Assembly: GCF_030863805.1 (NCBI RefSeq)
Contig: NZ_CP132957.1
Span: forward strand, 2,356,001-2,420,000
Origin: Kineothrix sp. MB12-C1
GTDB lineage: Bacteria > Bacillota > Clostridia > Lachnospirales > Lachnospiraceae
Direction of reading: 5' to 3'
Length of the DNA: 64,000 nucleotides
The translations under genes were made by a program, and so were the position numbers. Under the pieces are notes generated by a model. It ran no database searches. It was not told where the DNA came from and worked only from the letters and a program-made list of their open reading frames with translations. Positions 42,139-60,770 of this stretch are shown in pieces (position 1 is the stretch's first letter; each line of letters opens with the position of its first letter).

Positions 42139-42947
42139 GTAAAGAAAGAGAATTTTCTGCCAATAATCTGGTGGCGGGATATGATAAAAAGGTAATTATC
42201 GATGGGGTAGATGTGTTAATACCGAGCAATAAGATCAGTGTCATTATAGGAGCCAACGCCTGTGGAAAGTCTACCATGCTCAAAGCCCTTGCAAGGCTGG
42301 TAAAGCCTATTTCAGGTGAAATACTACTCGATGGAAAACAAATCGGGACTATGCCTTCCAAGCGGTTGGCGCAGATTTTAGGCTTGCTGCCGCAATCCCC
42401 TATTGTTCCCGAAGGAATTATTGTTTCGGATTTGGTGGCGCGTGGACGTTTTCCTCATCAGACCTTCTTAAAAGGAATGGGGAAAAAAGACTATGAAGCG
42501 GTAGAAGAGGCATTGCACATTATGGGCATTGCAGATCTTGCCAATCGAAGTGTGGATGAGCTTTCGGGAGGTCAGCGCCAAAGGGTATGGATCGCTATGG
42601 CGCTTGCCCAACAGACGGATATACTTCTTCTGGATGAACCCACTACTTATCTGGATATCACATACCAGGTGGAAATCTTGGATTTGTTGACAGATCTAAA
42701 CAGAAAGAGAGGAACGACCATTGTAATGGTATTGCATGATATCAATCTCTCGGCCCGGTATGCGGATTATATTTTTGCGGTGAAAAAGGGAGATCTTGTG
42801 GCACAGGGCGAGCCAGGGGATATCATTACAGAAGAGCTGATTCGGCAAGTTTTCGATTTAGACTGTAGTGTTATTCCGGATCCGGTTTCCGGCTCTCCGT
42901 TTATTATTCCCAAGGGAAGATATTATGTAAGGCCTCAAGGCGCTTAG
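42135..42947 (+). CDS. Siderophore ABC transporter ATPase (FepC type)
   Basis: A 270-residue ATPase. Walker A is 'VIIGANACGKSTMLKALARL'; note Ala-Cys where Gly-Ser or Gly-Ala is more common (GANACGKS), also seen in other FepC-like proteins. The ABC signature is 'DELSGGQRQRVWIAMALAQQ', Walker B 'DILLLDEPTTYLDI', and the switch His lies in 'VLHDINLSARYAD'. ATG 42135 follows AGGAGGAG, 4-base overlap with the permease stop. A longer in-frame reading exists upstream but runs antisense-frame through the permease and is not real. Confidence 0.96.
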   Translation: MSKEREFSANNLVAGYDKKVIIDGVDVLIPSNKISVIIGANACGKSTMLKALARLVKPISGEILLDGKQIGTMPSKRLAQILGLLPQSPIVPEGIIVSDLVARGRFPHQTFLKGMGKKDYEAVEEALHIMGIADLANRSVDELSGGQRQRVWIAMALAQQTDILLLDEPTTYLDITYQVEILDLLTDLNRKRGTTIVMVLHDINLSARYADYIFAVKKGDLVAQGEPGDIITEELIRQVFDLDCSVIPDPVSGSPFIIPKGRYYVRPQGA

Positions 42948-56775: not shown

Positions 56776-58500
56776 TTATTGTGATACGGTAAATAAGGAA
56801 TAGAAATATTCCTTTTTATCCATCAATTCTGCAAAGGTACCGTGTTCTTCTACTTTGCCATTTCGAAGAACGAGGATTTCGTCGTATTTGCGAAGCAAAG
56901 CTTCTTCCAAGCGATGAGTTACGATAATTCTGGTTAGGCCGGAGATAGAGAGAATGGAGTTAGTTACCGAAAAGGCAGTCTCCGCATCTAAGGCAGCGGT
57001 CGCCTCATCCACTAACATGACCGGAGTGCCGCGGAGAAGACAGCGTGCGATAGAGATGCGCTGTCTCTCGCCCCCCGAAAGACCGTTTCCATTTTCTCCG
57101 CATTCGTAGCTGCTTCCTCTTTCCTCAATAAAAGGGGATAGGCCGGACATTGCGATGGCATGATGTAACTTCTCCTCATCGAAGTTACGAAACATAGTAA
57201 TATTATTCTGCACAGAGCTGTTGAATACAAAAACATTCTGCTGAACAATGGAAACAAGATCATAAAGGGAATCCAGGCTGAGTGTGCGAAGTTCATTGCC
57301 GTCGAAAAGTATTTCTCCCTCATAATCTTCCCGGCTTCCGATGAGGAGATTGAGAAGAGTTGACTTCCCGCTTCCGGAGGCACCTACAACTGCATAGCTT
57401 TTACCGGCTTCGAAACGCATGTCGATATGATCTAATATCGGTGTGCTTTTTTCGTAGGAAAAGGAGAGATCTTTTAATTCGATAGCTCTGTTTAATTGTT
57501 TGTTTATCTGTTTGCCATCTCTTTGTATATTGGAATGGACGGCATCTGCAAGTTTGTCGATAAGAGCATTTGCGGCCTTGCGGTTAGCCAGAATCTGTGG
57601 GACATCAGCAATTGGTGTGATCACGAAGTTCATAAGCTGTACGAAGACGATAACAATGCCGGCAGTGATGCTTTGCTGTGTAAGTGCGAGGTAGGAACCG
57701 AATAGAAAGACACCGAATTGTGCAGTCAGTCCGGCCATAAAGCCGATAATCATAATCATAGTTTCTGTCATGCGCCGCCTGCACTTGGCTTCCTCGGTAG
57801 AGGTATTGCGTTCGGCAAAAAGGCGGATAACTTCAATCTCAGCCTTAAAGCTTTTAATCACCGAGAAGCCGGTCAGGATATCTTTGACTGCTCCTATAAA
57901 ACTCTCATTTTTATCGGATACTTCTTTTTCCTGAATGGCCAACCGGTTGCCTGTTAAAAGGGAGGCAATAACCGGAAGCAGGGAGAGAAGGAAAGCTACC
58001 AAAGTTAGAATGGGGCTGTAATATAACATTAAGGCAAAAGCACCGACGAACATCACTGATTCCTTTATTAAAGTGAAAATCTTCAGCAGATAGTTGTTCT
58101 CAATGCTAAGTACATCGTTGGACAAGGCGGAGAGGTAAGTGGAAGTATTCTCCGTATGGAATGAGTGAATGCTTTTCTGAGCAATTTTCTGAAAGGCAAA
58201 ATCCTTATATTGGATGATAGCTTTCTTGATGAAACGAGGACAAGAGTAGTATTCAATCATAAGAACGAAAAAGGTTGCCGCAACAATAATAATAAAAATA
58301 TAGGTAATCCGTAAAATGCCATATTGAGTGTTACCTGAGATAGAATCGATAATTTGCTGCATAATCCATGAAATGAGCAGATTGGAGCAGCCTAATAAAA
58401 TAGTGGCAGCTACAGAGAGAAGAAAAGCTCCTTTATTATGCAGATAAAATTGTTGTGTGAATTCTTTGCGCCGTGTCGGCATTTTACTTATTTTCTTCAT
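56776..58500 (-). CDS. ABC exporter, fused permease-ATPase (multidrug/peptide type)
   Basis: A 574-residue half-transporter: six transmembrane helices (~25-310) and an ATPase domain with Walker A 'AVVGASGSGKSTLLNLLIGS', signature 'NGLSGGERQRISIARCLLRG', Walker B 'TPVMLVDEATAALD' and switch 'IIVTHRLEEALLRKYDEI'. It would work as homodimer. ATG 58500 is chosen: it has GGAGG 9 bases upstream and overlaps the regulator's end by 17 bases; a longer frame upstream lies entirely in the regulator gene. Its regulator partner (XRE-TPR) suggests control by a peptide or antibiotic. Substrate unknown. Confidence 0.94.
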   Translation of the reverse strand: MKKISKMPTRRKEFTQQFYLHNKGAFLLSVAATILLGCSNLLISWIMQQIIDSISGNTQYGILRITYIFIIIVAATFFVLMIEYYSCPRFIKKAIIQYKDFAFQKIAQKSIHSFHTENTSTYLSALSNDVLSIENNYLLKIFTLIKESVMFVGAFALMLYYSPILTLVAFLLSLLPVIASLLTGNRLAIQEKEVSDKNESFIGAVKDILTGFSVIKSFKAEIEVIRLFAERNTSTEEAKCRRRMTETMIMIIGFMAGLTAQFGVFLFGSYLALTQQSITAGIVIVFVQLMNFVITPIADVPQILANRKAANALIDKLADAVHSNIQRDGKQINKQLNRAIELKDLSFSYEKSTPILDHIDMRFEAGKSYAVVGASGSGKSTLLNLLIGSREDYEGEILFDGNELRTLSLDSLYDLVSIVQQNVFVFNSSVQNNITMFRNFDEEKLHHAIAMSGLSPFIEERGSSYECGENGNGLSGGERQRISIARCLLRGTPVMLVDEATAALDAETAFSVTNSILSISGLTRIIVTHRLEEALLRKYDEILVLRNGKVEEHGTFAELMDKKEYFYSLFTVSQ

Positions 58501-59566
58501 CGATAAGTTTCCTCCAAAGTGTGTTGAGAATAGGATTAATATTTTCACGTAACATAAAAGCTTTCTTGAGTCCGGATAGGGCTGTTTCTCCGAAGTCATC
58601 TCCGATTGTCTGTGGTTTTCCGTGATAAAATCTAATATGAAGAGCATCGAAGCTCGGGTCTTTATCGAAACGGCGTGCAGCATCGATTGCCTGACTGAGA
58701 TATTCCTCTGCTTTATCGGCATCGTTCATATCGGCAGCTGCTTGTGCACAGGAAAGGAAGAGTACAACTTGTGCCCGATCCATATAGCAAACTTGATCCG
58801 GATATTTTAAGCCGCAAATAGTCTCGTTCATCCATGACAAGATATCGATTGCTAATTCATAATTGCCGTGGTGGCTATAGTAGTCAGAGAGGCCAATCAC
58901 CGTACGGAATACATTCAATACAGAGTCCAGGACGGTTTGGGAAAAATAAGGAAGAGCTTCTTCATGTCTTTTCAGTTGGGATAAGATGCAGCCAATCATA
59001 CTATTATTAATACCACAGGCATTATACTTTCTCAAATGCTCTAAAGCGCGCTCACTATCTCCTAAAGATACATAGAGTTCGCCTATGCTGGTCTGGAGGG
59101 ATAATTCGCTGATGGATGGGTCGGTGTTCTGAGAAATCAGACCGCATGCATGTTGAAACAGATTAATGGATTTGTGCAGCGCGGCCTGATCCCCTTTTTC
59201 TACACCCTTCATGGAATATAAAATAGCACTTTGATAAACTACATCAAAGCAGTTGGGAAAACGCTGCAGTGCCTTTTCGGCTTCTGCCTGGCCCTCTTCA
59301 TAATTTTTCTTAAGTAATAATTCCCGTATCTTCCCGGCGGCGAGTTCTGTAGTGCGAGTGGTTGGCTGATAACCCAGAAGAACATCTACCGATATCTCAA
59401 AGAAGTCAGCCAATACAGGGAGCATATTGATATCCGGATTCGACATACCGGATTCCCATTTCGATACCGCACCTACAGTAACTCCCATGGCCTCAGCTAA
59501 TTGTTCCTGCGTCAGTGAGAAAGACTTGCGGTGTTTACGGATATTTTCATTTAATGTAAGTTTCAT
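58484..59566 (-). CDS. XRE-family regulator with TPR-like repeats
   Basis: A 360-residue regulator with an N-terminal Cro/CI helix-turn-helix ('LTQEQLAEAMGVTVGAVSKW', 'ESGMSNPDINMLPVLADFFE', ~15-65) and then ~290 residues of helical TPR-like repeats ('YEEGQAEAEKALQRFPNCFD', 'LYVSLGDSERALEHLRKYNA', 'HEEALPYFSQTVLDS'). This layout recalls peptide-responsive RRNPP/Rgg regulators, but no small peptide gene is evident nearby. It overlaps the ABC exporter gene by 17 bases, so the two form an operon. AAGGAGAT lies before the ATG. Confidence 0.9.
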   Translation of the reverse strand: MKLTLNENIRKHRKSFSLTQEQLAEAMGVTVGAVSKWESGMSNPDINMLPVLADFFEISVDVLLGYQPTTRTTELAAGKIRELLLKKNYEEGQAEAEKALQRFPNCFDVVYQSAILYSMKGVEKGDQAALHKSINLFQHACGLISQNTDPSISELSLQTSIGELYVSLGDSERALEHLRKYNACGINNSMIGCILSQLKRHEEALPYFSQTVLDSVLNVFRTVIGLSDYYSHHGNYELAIDILSWMNETICGLKYPDQVCYMDRAQVVLFLSCAQAAADMNDADKAEEYLSQAIDAARRFDKDPSFDALHIRFYHGKPQTIGDDFGETALSGLKKAFMLRENINPILNTLWRKLIDEENK

Positions 59567-59635
59567 AGGAATCTCCTTGTGAAGAAATATTAGGTAATTG
59601 AGAAATTATACTTTTACTTAGTTAGGTTTGTGAAG

Positions 59636-59866
59636 GGATTTCGCTTGGCAGCTTTTGTTTTCCTTCCGGTGCGCGCAGTTGTTATTTTCTGGAATGAAAC
59701 GAGGAGGAGTGAGGATTCGCCCGGGGCGGAAGCAAGGTACTTCCATGTACCGTGCTTCCTAAACACCGCCTCCATGCGGTGTTTGCCCTGGATTCTCGAA
59801 CGTTTCATTAAGAAAATAGGAACCGCTTGCTGACAGGAAGTAAAACAAAACTGCCAAGCGAAATCC
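59636..59866 (-). ncRNA. Structured element A: candidate RNA with two GGA-loop hairpins
   Basis: The arms 59636-59667 and 59836-59866 form a 31-bp stem with one bulge and one mismatch (GGATTTCGCTTGGCAG...CTGCCAAGCGAAATCC). Inside, on the minus strand, a ~71-nt core (59791 to 59721) folds as a three-way junction. P1 is CCAGGGC / GCCCCGG. P2 is AAACACCGC-[AUGGAG]-GCGGTGTTT. P3 is GGAAGCAcGGTAC-[AUGGAA]-GTACCtTGCTTCC. Both hairpin loops expose AUGGA. The core is homologous to element B on the other strand. Layout resembles the TwoAYGGAY RNA class. Transcription from a minus-strand TATAAT around 59907 is possible but not convincing. Confidence 0.6.
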
Positions 59867-60057
59867 TAATAAAGGCTGTGAAATGGTACATAAAGCTAGT
59901 AGAAATTATACATTTCATAATTTCGTATTACTTTGTACTGAGTATGAAAAGTAATGTGTAATTTATAGTGATTAATGCTATTATATATGATGTAAAAATA
60001 GATTTGAAGATAATGAATGGAAAGATAGTAAAAAAATATTTTTACTGTTAGTATAAT

Positions 60058-60087
60058 TTGATAAAGTAAAAATGGATATGTTATACT
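60058..60087 (+). promoter_or_regulatory. Promoter for element B
   Basis: TTGATA (60058-60063) and TATACT (60082-60087) with an 18-base spacer predict a transcript start near 60094, six bases before the outer stem of element B. So the element would be transcribed from its very first base pair, either as an RNA of its own or as the leader of the DUF4180 gene. Confidence 0.55.
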
Positions 60088-60099
60088 ATAGAGAAAACA

Positions 60100-60316
60100 G
60101 GATTCGCCCGTGTTGATTTGGAATCCGTCAAGCAAACTGCTTGCATTTTCTTAATGGAATCTAAATAACCCAGGGTAAATGCCACAAGGATGTGGCATTT
60201 AGGAAGCCGGTACAAGGATGTACCTGCTGACGCCCCGGCTGCCACTAATATGTAACGATTCCATTTAGAAAATACAGCAGTGTGCGCCCGGCATTCAAAT
60301 CAATACGGGCGAATCC
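60100..60316 (+). ncRNA. Structured element B: candidate RNA with two ACAAGGAUGU hairpins
   Basis: Outer arms 60100-60126 and 60291-60316 (GGATTCGCCCGT... / ...ACGGGCGAATCC) and a second stem 60137-60161 / 60257-60280 enclose a ~69-nt core (60170-60238). P1 is CCAGGGT / GCCCCGG. P2 is AAATGCCAC-[AAGGAT]-GTGGCATTT (60177-60200). P3 is GGTAC-[AAGGAT]-GTACC (60209-60224). The P3 string GTACAAGGATGT equals the SELEX consensus for CsrA binding (RUACARGGAUGU), and P2 matches ACAAGGAUGU. With its own promoter just upstream it is a candidate CsrA-binding RNA or a TwoAYGGAY-like RNA. No U-tract follows. Confidence 0.65.
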
Positions 60317-60380: not shown

Positions 60381-60770
60381 ATGAAAACGGAAATTATATC
60401 ACTGGGAGAAATACAAATAGAAAAAATAGAAATGGATGGGAATACGATAGCTTACATCAGAAGTGATTCCCCGATACTTACTGATGTGCAGTCGGCCTTA
60501 GATTTAATAGCAACGGTGGATTATCAGACAGGATGCAGCAATCTGATCCTCGACAAAGAGAGTATTGTGGAAGAATTCTTTGACTTAAAGACGCGCCTTG
60601 CAGGGGAAATCATACAAAAATATGTGAACTATAGGGTCAGACTTGCGATCGTCGGCGATTTTTCCGGATACACGAGCAAGGCTTTGCGCGATTTTATCTA
60701 TGAGTGCAATCATGGAAAAGATTTATTTTTTGTTTCCGATAAAGAGGAGGCATTGAAGAGGCTTCTGTAG
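60381..60770 (+). CDS. DUF4180-family protein
   Basis: A 129-residue soluble protein matching the DUF4180 pattern over its whole length: 'ILTDVQSALDLIATVDYQTG', 'KESIVEEFFDLKTRLAGEII', 'NYRVRLAIVGDFSGYTSKAL' and 'DFIYECNHGKDLFFVSDKEE'. The fold resembles STAS/SpoIIAA-type small domains; function unknown, sometimes found with regulators or alpha/beta proteins. The start codon lies 65 bases after element B, with a weak AGGAAA site ~14 bases away, so translation may depend on the upstream RNA structure. Convergent with the histidine kinase, 19 bases apart. Confidence 0.8.
   Translation: MKTEIISLGEIQIEKIEMDGNTIAYIRSDSPILTDVQSALDLIATVDYQTGCSNLILDKESIVEEFFDLKTRLAGEIIQKYVNYRVRLAIVGDFSGYTSKALRDFIYECNHGKDLFFVSDKEEALKRLL

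What the first reader, a model, noticed from the sequence alone, without database searches (positions are those of the whole stretch)
59721..60238. Two divergent homologous RNA-like cores with GGA-loop hairpin pairs (CsrA/TwoAYGGAY-like)
The cores at 59791-59721 (minus) and 60170-60238 (plus) share the frame CCAGGGy-AAA-[hairpin]-AGGAAGC-[hairpin]-GCCCCGG. Stems differ by compensatory changes (AAACACCGC/GCGGTGTTT versus AAATGCCAC/GTGGCATTT), while loops keep a 6-base GGA-containing loop (AUGGAG, AUGGAA; AAGGAU twice). Covariation plus loop conservation is strong evidence for a functional RNA. One hairpin equals the CsrA SELEX consensus. Known: CsrA dimers bind two such hairpins, and TwoAYGGAY is a described orphan RNA motif with two AYGGAY loops. 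Inference: either a CsrA-sequestering sRNA pair or a TwoAYGGAY relative with relaxed loops (ARGGAY).
Basis: partly seen in the sequence, partly recalled or inferred. Interest (0 to 1): 0.82.

Follow-up and report, generated by a model that had tools for sequence, protein, structure and literature searches.

The report
Mobile DNA palindrome behind "TwoAYGGAY RNA"
The two look-alike hairpin cores belong to a catalogued but unexplained "RNA" family (TwoAYGGAY) that, in this bacterial genus, looks like the centre of a short mobile DNA palindrome copied up to dozens of times per genome; whether its transcripts also catch the regulator protein CsrA is still open.

Summary
In detail: both cores match Rfam RF01731 (TwoAYGGAY) above its gathering score (76.7 and 59.5 bits, cut-off 43), and the CsrA idea is already in print (PMC4333381). 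The inference "covariation, hence functional RNA" does not hold as stated. Each core is the centre of a longer palindrome. The own genome holds about 23 copies; the 16 same-genus genomes list 0 to 58. In two of them copies have terminal inverted repeats and target-site duplications of about 8-10 bp (8 of 15 and 6 of 25 copies; about 0.1 expected each). Neither window copy is found beside the orthologous genes of two relatives. Stems covary strongly, but G-U cells do not exceed A-C cells (12 vs 21), whereas RNase P and T-box RNAs from largely the same genomes give 256 vs 15 and 75 vs 11: pairing appears to be kept at DNA level. Yet the GGA loops are conserved (36 of 40 each), and 60 of 66 carrier genomes have csrA. 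Best reading: a MITE-like mobile palindrome; a CsrA role is possible, unproven. No transposase was found, and TSDs are not detectable in the window's own genome.

The parts
59668..59833 (-). copy A, TwoAYGGAY core (RF01731)
   Evidence: 59.5 bits, gathering 43
59636..59866 (-). copy A with its palindromic outer arms (59636-59660 / 59842-59866, 88% complementary)
59761..59784 (-). copy A hairpin 1, loop AUGGAG
   Evidence: sequence, fold
59728..59759 (-). copy A hairpin 2, loop AUGGAA
   Evidence: sequence, fold
59601..59615. candidate target-site duplication of copy A, left (14 of 15 letters like 59901-59915); unproven, the genome-wide test is negative
59901..59915 (.). candidate target-site duplication of copy A, right; unproven
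60129..60288 (+). copy B, TwoAYGGAY core (RF01731)
   Evidence: 76.7 bits
60100..60316 (+). copy B with its palindromic outer arms (60100-60127 / 60289-60316, 86% complementary)
60177..60200 (+). copy B hairpin 1, loop AAGGAU
   Evidence: sequence, fold
60209..60224 (+). copy B hairpin 2, loop AAGGAU
   Evidence: sequence, fold
60002..60063 (.). box between the two copies; in relatives G200 and G201 a similar box (81 and 84% identical) lies upstream of the XRE-TPR gene without an element in between
58484..59566 (-). neighbour: XRE-type HTH_3 + TPR regulator gene, downstream of copy A
60381..60770 (+). neighbour: DUF4180 gene, downstream of copy B

Best explanation
The two cores are old copies of a dispersed, MITE-like mobile DNA element. 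Its layout is: terminal inverted repeat, long palindromic arms, inner stem, and a centre with two GGA-loop hairpins, which is what Rfam calls TwoAYGGAY RNA. Shown: multi-copy dispersal, palindromic arms, TIRs with target-site duplications of about 8-10 bp in two same-genus genomes, absence beside the orthologous genes of two relatives, strand-symmetric covariation. Inferred: a cut-and-paste type (DDE) transposase supplied in trans moves it; stem complementarity is restored by DNA-level copying between palindrome arms (template switching), so stems drift in step while the loops stay. The conserved twin GGA loops are under some other, strand-specific constraint. Binding of read-through transcripts by the host's CsrA is the leading guess for that constraint (about 0.4), not a result; it is compatible with the mobile-element reading.
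For: Copies: 14 CM matches in the own genome, the window's minus copy, 8 further BLAST sites, some partial. Genus: 12 of 16 genomes carry it, 0 to 58 matches. Palindromes: in G202, 41 of 42 copies have arms of 51-143 aligned columns outside the core, 33 of them at least 90% complementary (lowest 74%; L099 shows only 10 nt), while 65 nt of the 5' arm are on average only 0.58 and 0.56 identical between copies (maxima 0.79, 0.82; shuffled 0.52, 0.53) and cores 0.87 and 0.81. Arms beyond the Rfam model also in 23 of 23 family loci and 19 of 24 class-sample loci, 0 in shuffles. TIR pattern in G202: 93 hits, 2 for the reversed control. TSDs: G209 8 of 15, G202 6 of 25 copies with score 7 or more; permuted means 0.12 and 0.06, maxima 2 and 1 in 300. 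XRE loci of G200 and G201 keep the box but are about 310 nt shorter, without copy A; no RF01731 match near their DUF4180 orthologues. Strand symmetry: GU/AC cells 12/21 in TwoAYGGAY, 256/15 in RNase P, 75/11 in T-box; 9/8 in 25 further loci; arms 178/189 (corrected).
Against: No transposase or autonomous copy with this TIR: no TIR pair 1-3.5 kb apart among the 93 hits in G202 (by eye), and no transposase among 20 ORFs from ten loci tested against Pfam. In the window's own genome the TSD test is negative (0 of 15 at score 8 or more, 0.30 expected); in G122+G176 it is weak (1 of 13 against 0.47; mean 5.15 against 3.97). The absence of copies in relatives was not polarised, and XRE and DUF4180 are not neighbours there, so copy B has no strict empty site. 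Some insertions are old: G200 and G201 both have copies on both sides of ribH. In 25 loci, 23 of them outside the family, folding energy favours the sense strand (21 of 25, mean -5.6 kcal/mol), although GU and AC stay equal. The conserved GGA loops and the csrA co-occurrence are not explained by mobility alone.
Confidence: 0.8

Rival explanations
1. A CsrA-sequestering small RNA family: each copy is transcribed, and the twin GGA hairpins hold one CsrA dimer, so many copies together act as a sponge (Gardner and Eldai hypothesis). This need not exclude that the copies spread by transposition.
For: GGA kept in 36 of 40 sequences for each loop. csrA in 34 of 35 (family) and 31 of 36 (class) carrier genomes, against 110 of 200 and 125 of 391 overall. 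Host CsrA looks canonical and sits beside FliW. Published motif match.
Against: Six of 66 distinct carrier genomes lack both csrA and fliW; the one copy looked at from each keeps GGA in both loops. No intrinsic terminator at the 3' ends of the window copies; promoter-like matches 4 against 2.6 expected. Stems lack the G-U excess that RNase P and T-box show. Some lineages have CGA instead of GGA.
Confidence: 0.35
2. A cis-regulatory leader of the neighbouring genes: copy A in the XRE-TPR 5' leader and copy B in the DUF4180 5' leader.
For: Both copies lie in sense upstream of these start codons; copy A lies between the XRE gene and the box. Rfam types the family as Cis-reg.
Against: Orthologues of both genes in G200 and G201 lack it. 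Elsewhere gene context is mixed: convergent, divergent and tandem (rough ORF calls). Weinberg 2010 scored it not cis-regulatory.
Confidence: 0.05
3. A single-stranded DNA hairpin or cruciform recognition site (as in REP or integron-like systems): the GGA loops are read as DNA by a recombinase or replication protein.
For: Strand-symmetric pairing, long palindromes, head-to-head pairs: among 19 close pairs in the printed lists 17 divergent, 2 tandem, 0 convergent.
Against: TIR plus TSD points to a DDE transposase rather than a Y1 or tyrosine recombinase (established knowledge, recalled); no candidate protein was identified and none of those families was searched for.
Confidence: 0.25

Closest known systems
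TwoAYGGAY RNA, Rfam RF01731 (clan CL00106)
   Same: Both cores pass the gathering score over the whole 168-position model.
   Different: Strict AYGGAY is not met in the four loops; the element extends beyond the model into palindromic arms; multi-copy and, in two same-genus genomes, with TIRs and TSDs; helices look DNA-maintained.
[quoted passage not shown]
   Same: Short, TIRs, TSDs, dozens of copies, lineage-specific presence.
   Different: Palindromic almost throughout; conserved structured centre with twin GGA hairpins; close copies pair head to head; driving transposase unknown.
CsrB/CsrC/RsmY-type CsrA sponges
   Same: GGA-loop hairpins in pairs; csrA in the genome.
   Different: E. coli CsrB and CsrC fold 16.2 and 13.0 kcal/mol better in sense than antisense, TwoAYGGAY does not (mean +1.7 over 40); no terminators at the window copies; dispersed repeats rather than one or two genes.
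REP/BIME palindromes
   Same: Extragenic palindromes in many copies, paired copies (recalled).
   Different: Length, TIR and TSD; a Y1 transposase was not searched for.

Membership tests
TwoAYGGAY RF01731 | score at or above the Rfam gathering threshold (43 bits) | tested here: met
   76.7 and 59.5 bits
TwoAYGGAY RF01731 | two terminal loops AYGGAY | tested here: inconclusive
   GGA kept in all four; loops AUGGAG, AUGGAA, AAGGAU, AAGGAU
TwoAYGGAY RF01731 | helices covary across homologues | tested here: met
   25 of 26 pairs with double changes; covariation score 0.86 vs 0.22 shuffled
functional structured RNA | G-U tolerated and A-C not, in the sense strand | tested here: not met
   GU 12 vs AC 21; RNase P 256 vs 15; T-box 75 vs 11; 9 vs 8 in 25 further loci
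functional structured RNA | sense strand folds better than antisense | tested here: inconclusive
   21 of 40, mean +1.7; one per genus 19 of 26; G202 26 of 42; G209 4 of 20; but 21 of 25, mean -5.6, in loci mostly outside the family
CsrA-sequestering sRNA | paired GGA-loop hairpins | tested here: met
   36 of 40 for each loop
CsrA-sequestering sRNA | csrA in the genome | tested here: met
   own genome yes; 60 of 66 carriers
CsrA-sequestering sRNA | free-standing transcript with own promoter and terminator | tested here: inconclusive
   promoter-like sites not above chance, no 3' terminator at the window copies; no expression data
CsrA-sequestering sRNA | binds CsrA | not testable with these tools
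   needs a gel shift or CLIP
MITE | terminal inverted repeats | tested here: met
   G202 and G209: GGAAATCMATTTT-type ends on both sides (up to 2 mismatches) in 25 of 42 and 15 of 20 copies; window copies have inverted-repeat ends of a different, degraded kind
MITE | target-site duplication, in same-genus genomes G209 and G202 | tested here: met
   8 of 15 and 6 of 25; permuted means 0.12 and 0.06
MITE | target-site duplication, in the window's own genome | tested here: not met
   0 of 15 against 0.30 expected; one 14-of-15 candidate repeat at copy A
MITE | empty orthologous sites | tested here: met
   copy A: XRE locus in G200 and G201; copy B: only absence near DUF4180 orthologues
MITE | cognate transposase or autonomous parent | tested here: inconclusive
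   none found: by eye; 20 ORFs against Pfam
cis-regulatory leader | conserved position before orthologous genes | tested here: not met

The most novel reading that the evidence does not exclude
TwoAYGGAY is not primarily an RNA but a family of selfish DNA palindromes, present in 12 Clostridia families of the sample, whose centre carries a CsrA-like docking pair. It spreads by transposition, tends to insert head to head, keeps its stems complementary by DNA template switching, and seeds the genome with potential CsrA decoy sites, tying the reach of a global regulator to transposon copy number.
Probability: 0.3. Interest if true: 0.87.

Novelty: new variant of a known kind. Interest (0 to 1): 0.7.

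Why it matters
An orphan Rfam family described as RNA in 2010 and proposed as a CsrA sponge in 2014 shows, in this genus, the marks of a mobile DNA palindrome. That would explain why it is scattered and has no gene context, and it makes the CsrA hypothesis testable in a named isolate (Kineothrix alysoides; 16 matches in G200, which I take to be that strain). The strand test used here (G-U versus A-C among non-Watson-Crick cells, with true RNAs from largely the same genomes as controls) is a general way to tell RNA covariation from DNA-palindrome covariation in Rfam-like families.

Tried and rejected
Dedicated sRNA pair: rejected as the main reading, because of about 23 copies in the genome and missing copies in relatives. 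Cis-regulatory leader: rejected, gene context not conserved. Autonomous transposon with the same TIR in G202: not found; two wider divergent pairs (about 1.0 and 1.2 kb apart, G201 and G200) looked like a possible autonomous unit, but they flank ribH, a host gene. Phage or plasmid carriage: no match of one G202 element in plasmids or of the window stretch in phages by distant BLAST, nor of two exact core patterns in viral contigs.

Tests that failed or were wrong: the alignment-free single-mismatch count did not separate the RNA controls (RNase P 35 GU/25 AC, T-box 8/8), so it is not used. In one search a key collision inflated the AC count; corrected by arithmetic (AC-type 87, 44, 31, 27; GU 76, 41, 41, 20). 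In one search the hairpin filter counted G-U as paired and so was biased towards it (13 GU vs 4 AC); one search used a symmetric filter (11 GU vs 7 AC over 122 hairpins, distinct within each of five sets). Searches used wrong gap lengths; repeated in 92 and 93. The loose TSD test was negative for the own genome. The sense-versus-antisense energy test is mixed; where it favours sense this may come from loops and tandem G-A rather than G-U (inference). The cmscan missed L171, which by eye is a copy, so copy counts are lower bounds. Paper searches gave no paper on mobility of TwoAYGGAY in their listings.

Rows left out: RNase P control 28 loci of 29 genomes with a match (the partial G192 match left out); T-box control 26 of 28 genomes (L285 and L305 left out); L149 left out of the class-sample set; that set of 25 loci includes two of the own family (G168, G326).

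Full report
WHAT IS IN THE WINDOW. The two cores are present at the stated coordinates. Rfam's TwoAYGGAY model (RF01731) matches both over its full length: 60129-60288 (+), 76.7 bits, and 59668-59833 (-), 59.5 bits, gathering score 43. Around each core lies an imperfect inverted repeat outside the Rfam core: 60100-60127 with 60289-60316 and 59636-59660 with 59842-59866. The whole elements fold at -106.1 and -116.0 kcal/mol, z about -10.9 and -10.5 against shuffles. No intrinsic-terminator-like site sits at their 3' ends, and promoter-like sites are not above chance (4 found, 2.6 expected). The neighbours are an XRE/TPR regulator and a DUF4180 gene.

WHO CARRIES IT. The window's genome is one 3.94 Mb contig. 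A named relative by the XRE protein is Kineothrix alysoides KNHs209 (58% identity; Lachnospiraceae). Its contig NZ_JPNB01000002.1 has the same length as contig C2 of the same-genus genome G200 (1,934,598 bases), so I take G200 to be that strain (inference). The own genome has 14 listed matches, the window's minus copy, and 8 further BLAST sites (197394, 1033300, 1033674, 2606140, 2671512, 2794356, 3144785, 3284682; some partial). In the genus 12 of 16 genomes carry it, from 0 to 58 matches. In the family sample 35 of 200 genomes (one per genus) and in the class sample 36 of 391 carry it; 27 of those 36 exceed the gathering score.

IT LOOKS LIKE A MOBILE PALINDROME. In G202 I took 42 copies (38 single loci and two pairs), two subfamilies with cores 0.87 and 0.81 identical. 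Outside the core 41 of 42 copies have complementary arms of 51-143 aligned columns, 33 of them at 90% or more, the lowest 74%, with cases such as 128/128, 108/108 and 93/93; L099 shows only 10 nt. Between copies, 65 nt of the 5' arm are on average 0.58 and 0.56 identical, close to shuffled letters (0.52, 0.53), though single pairs of copies reach 0.79 and 0.82. Many ends share the terminal inverted repeat CACGGAAATCAATTTT (93 hits with up to 2 mismatches in G202, 2 for the reversed control). Direct repeats of about 8-10 bp sit at near-constant offsets outside the ends. In G209, 8 of 15 copies with both TIRs (of 20 fetched) score 7 or more, against a permuted mean of 0.12 (maximum 2 in 300); in G202, 6 of 25 (of 42 fetched), against 0.06 (maximum 1). 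This is the signature of DNA transposition. In the window's own genome the looser test is negative (0 of 15 against 0.30), and in G122+G176 it is weak (1 of 13 against 0.47; mean 5.15 against 3.97): those copies may be older or end differently. Outer arms beyond the Rfam model are general: 23 of 23 family loci and 19 of 24 class-sample loci, none in shuffles. No transposase was found: no TIR pair 1-3.5 kb apart in G202 and none among 20 ORFs from ten loci against Pfam.

MISSING COPIES AND SHARED COPIES. The XRE gene has orthologues in G200 and G201. There a box 81-84% identical to window 60002-60063 sits about 178 and 122 nt from the matched end of the gene, against 487 and 435 nt in the window, and copy A is missing. 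No RF01731 match (E up to 0.1) was found in the loci around the XRE orthologues (L188 of G206, L189 of G200, L190 of G201, and L247, the named copy of the G200 locus) or around DUF4180 orthologues (L198 of G201, L199 of G200, L192 of G208; located). XRE and DUF4180 lie about 60 kb apart in G200 and G201, so copy B has no strict empty site, and I did not polarise gain against loss. A 15-nt direct repeat (14 of 15) at 59601 and 59901 may be the duplication of copy A, but given the negative genome-wide test I do not lean on it. Not every insertion is recent: G200 and G201 both carry a divergent couple flanking ribH (lumazine synthase, 96% identical), so those insertions predate their split.

THE COVARIATION IS NOT RNA-LIKE. 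In an alignment of 40 sequences (15 own copies plus one from each of 25 other genera) 25 of 26 pairs show double changes and 87.7% of cells pair against 51.6% for shuffles. But G-U cells (12) do not exceed A-C cells (21); one-per-genus 10 vs 12; own genome 7 vs 4; 25 loci, 23 of them outside the family, 9 vs 8. RNase P from 28 genomes, 26 of them in the TwoAYGGAY alignment, gives 256 vs 15, and T-box from 26 largely overlapping genomes gives 75 vs 11. Sense and antisense fold about equally well for TwoAYGGAY (sense better in 21 of 40, mean +1.7 kcal/mol; one per genus 19 of 26, -0.7; G202 26 of 42, -1.2; G209 4 of 20, +2.0), whereas RNase P (27 of 28, -12.4), T-box (26 of 26, -14.2), CsrB (-16.2) and CsrC (-13.0) favour sense. 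One result goes the other way: in the 25 mostly non-family loci sense is better in 21 (mean -5.6), although GU and AC stay equal. The arms too are symmetric (178 GU vs 189 AC, one search corrected). Selection for a folded sense RNA should allow G-U and punish A-C; Weinberg et al. 2010 argue from G-U pairs in this way to orient another motif (passage seen). Template switching can create and repair perfect stems (abstract of PMC8794818 seen) and could give this symmetric pattern and the drifting arms. An RNA read from both strands would also be symmetric; I cannot exclude it.

WHAT STAYS UNEXPLAINED: THE LOOPS AND THE PAIRS. GGA is kept in 36 of 40 sequences for each loop, and in the one copy looked at from each csrA-less carrier. 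So the loops seem to be under a strand-specific constraint. Close copies (starts within 600 bp, in the printed lists) are head to head in 17 of 19 cases, tandem in 2, tail to tail in none (counted by eye). Flanking genes run in all orientations, so this is not simple 5'-leader placement.

CsrA. Carriers have csrA in 34 of 35 (family) and 31 of 36 (class) genomes, against 110 of 200 and 125 of 391 overall (five genomes are in both samples, giving 60 of 66 distinct carriers). In the class sample the carriers fall in 12 families, each of which includes csrA-positive genomes (my reading of the lists). The six exceptions (G168, G391, G432, G471, G489, G531; 80-98% complete) also lack fliW, while genus mates of five of them (G234, G322, G406) have it. 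The host CsrA carries the usual LSRK and YRKEVY segments (their role in RNA binding is recalled). The association is strong, but csrA is patchy by lineage and, as far as I recall, goes with flagella, so it is not proof. The CsrA hypothesis for TwoAYGGAY was published by Gardner and Eldai (PMC4333381, passages seen); Weinberg et al. 2010 scored the motif as probably RNA and not cis-regulatory (PMC2864571, table row seen).

LITERATURE. Searches for TwoAYGGAY (7 papers, 5 listed), RF01731 (4), 'miniature inverted-repeat' with CsrA (1, the Rfam 12 paper, which warns of MITEs among plant miRNA families) and a six-term MITE/Rfam query (0) gave, in the passages I read, no statement that TwoAYGGAY is mobile. 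I did not open PMC7682815. Only open-licence PMC papers were searched, and Weinberg's additional files were not seen.

VERDICT. Member of a known Rfam family; most likely a MITE-like mobile DNA palindrome whose stem covariation has been read as RNA evidence; a CsrA role for its loops is possible and now sharply testable.

Noticed in passing
L162 1501-1883 (G202:C1:1396341-1396723): An element with intact TIRs and arms but a heavily changed core: A changed 29/39, C 18/33, G 11/41, T 2/39 against the subfamily consensus. Adenine-biased, but the core is T-rich in sense, so alignment bias is possible.
   Followed up: partly
close pairs in G000, G202, G086, G008, G037, G212, G391: Neighbouring copies are almost always head to head (17 divergent, 2 tandem in G166 and G434, 0 convergent).
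   Followed up: partly
L057 1501-2709 (G201) and L067 281-1663 (G200): In two species a divergent couple of copies flanks ribH at the same place: an old, shared pair.
   Followed up: partly
window 59605-59634 (-): A promoter-like TTCACA-18-TATAAT (11 of 12) spans the region just past the 3' arm of copy A and the candidate direct repeat, pointing at the XRE gene.
   Followed up: no
L160 1202-1466, L184 1198-1486: The long hairpins also hit plant microRNA models (MIR1858, MIR533) below their gathering scores, showing how palindromic repeats mimic miRNA precursors.
   Followed up: no
L178 1467-1516 (G202:C3:679136-679185): A 50-bp remnant with the two TIRs almost back to back: deleted element.
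   Followed up: no
A1 rows G022, G096, G170 (loop 1); G096, G008, G166 (loop 2): Loop CACGAUG (CGA) replaces GGA in these copies.
   Followed up: no
G202 and G209 5' arms: The 5' arms are purine-rich (about 0.6-0.77 A+G in most copies) although their sequences differ between copies.
   Followed up: no
G153:C14:42175-42326 (+): A TwoAYGGAY copy lies about 270 nt from the RNase P RNA gene (42594-42938, -).
   Followed up: no
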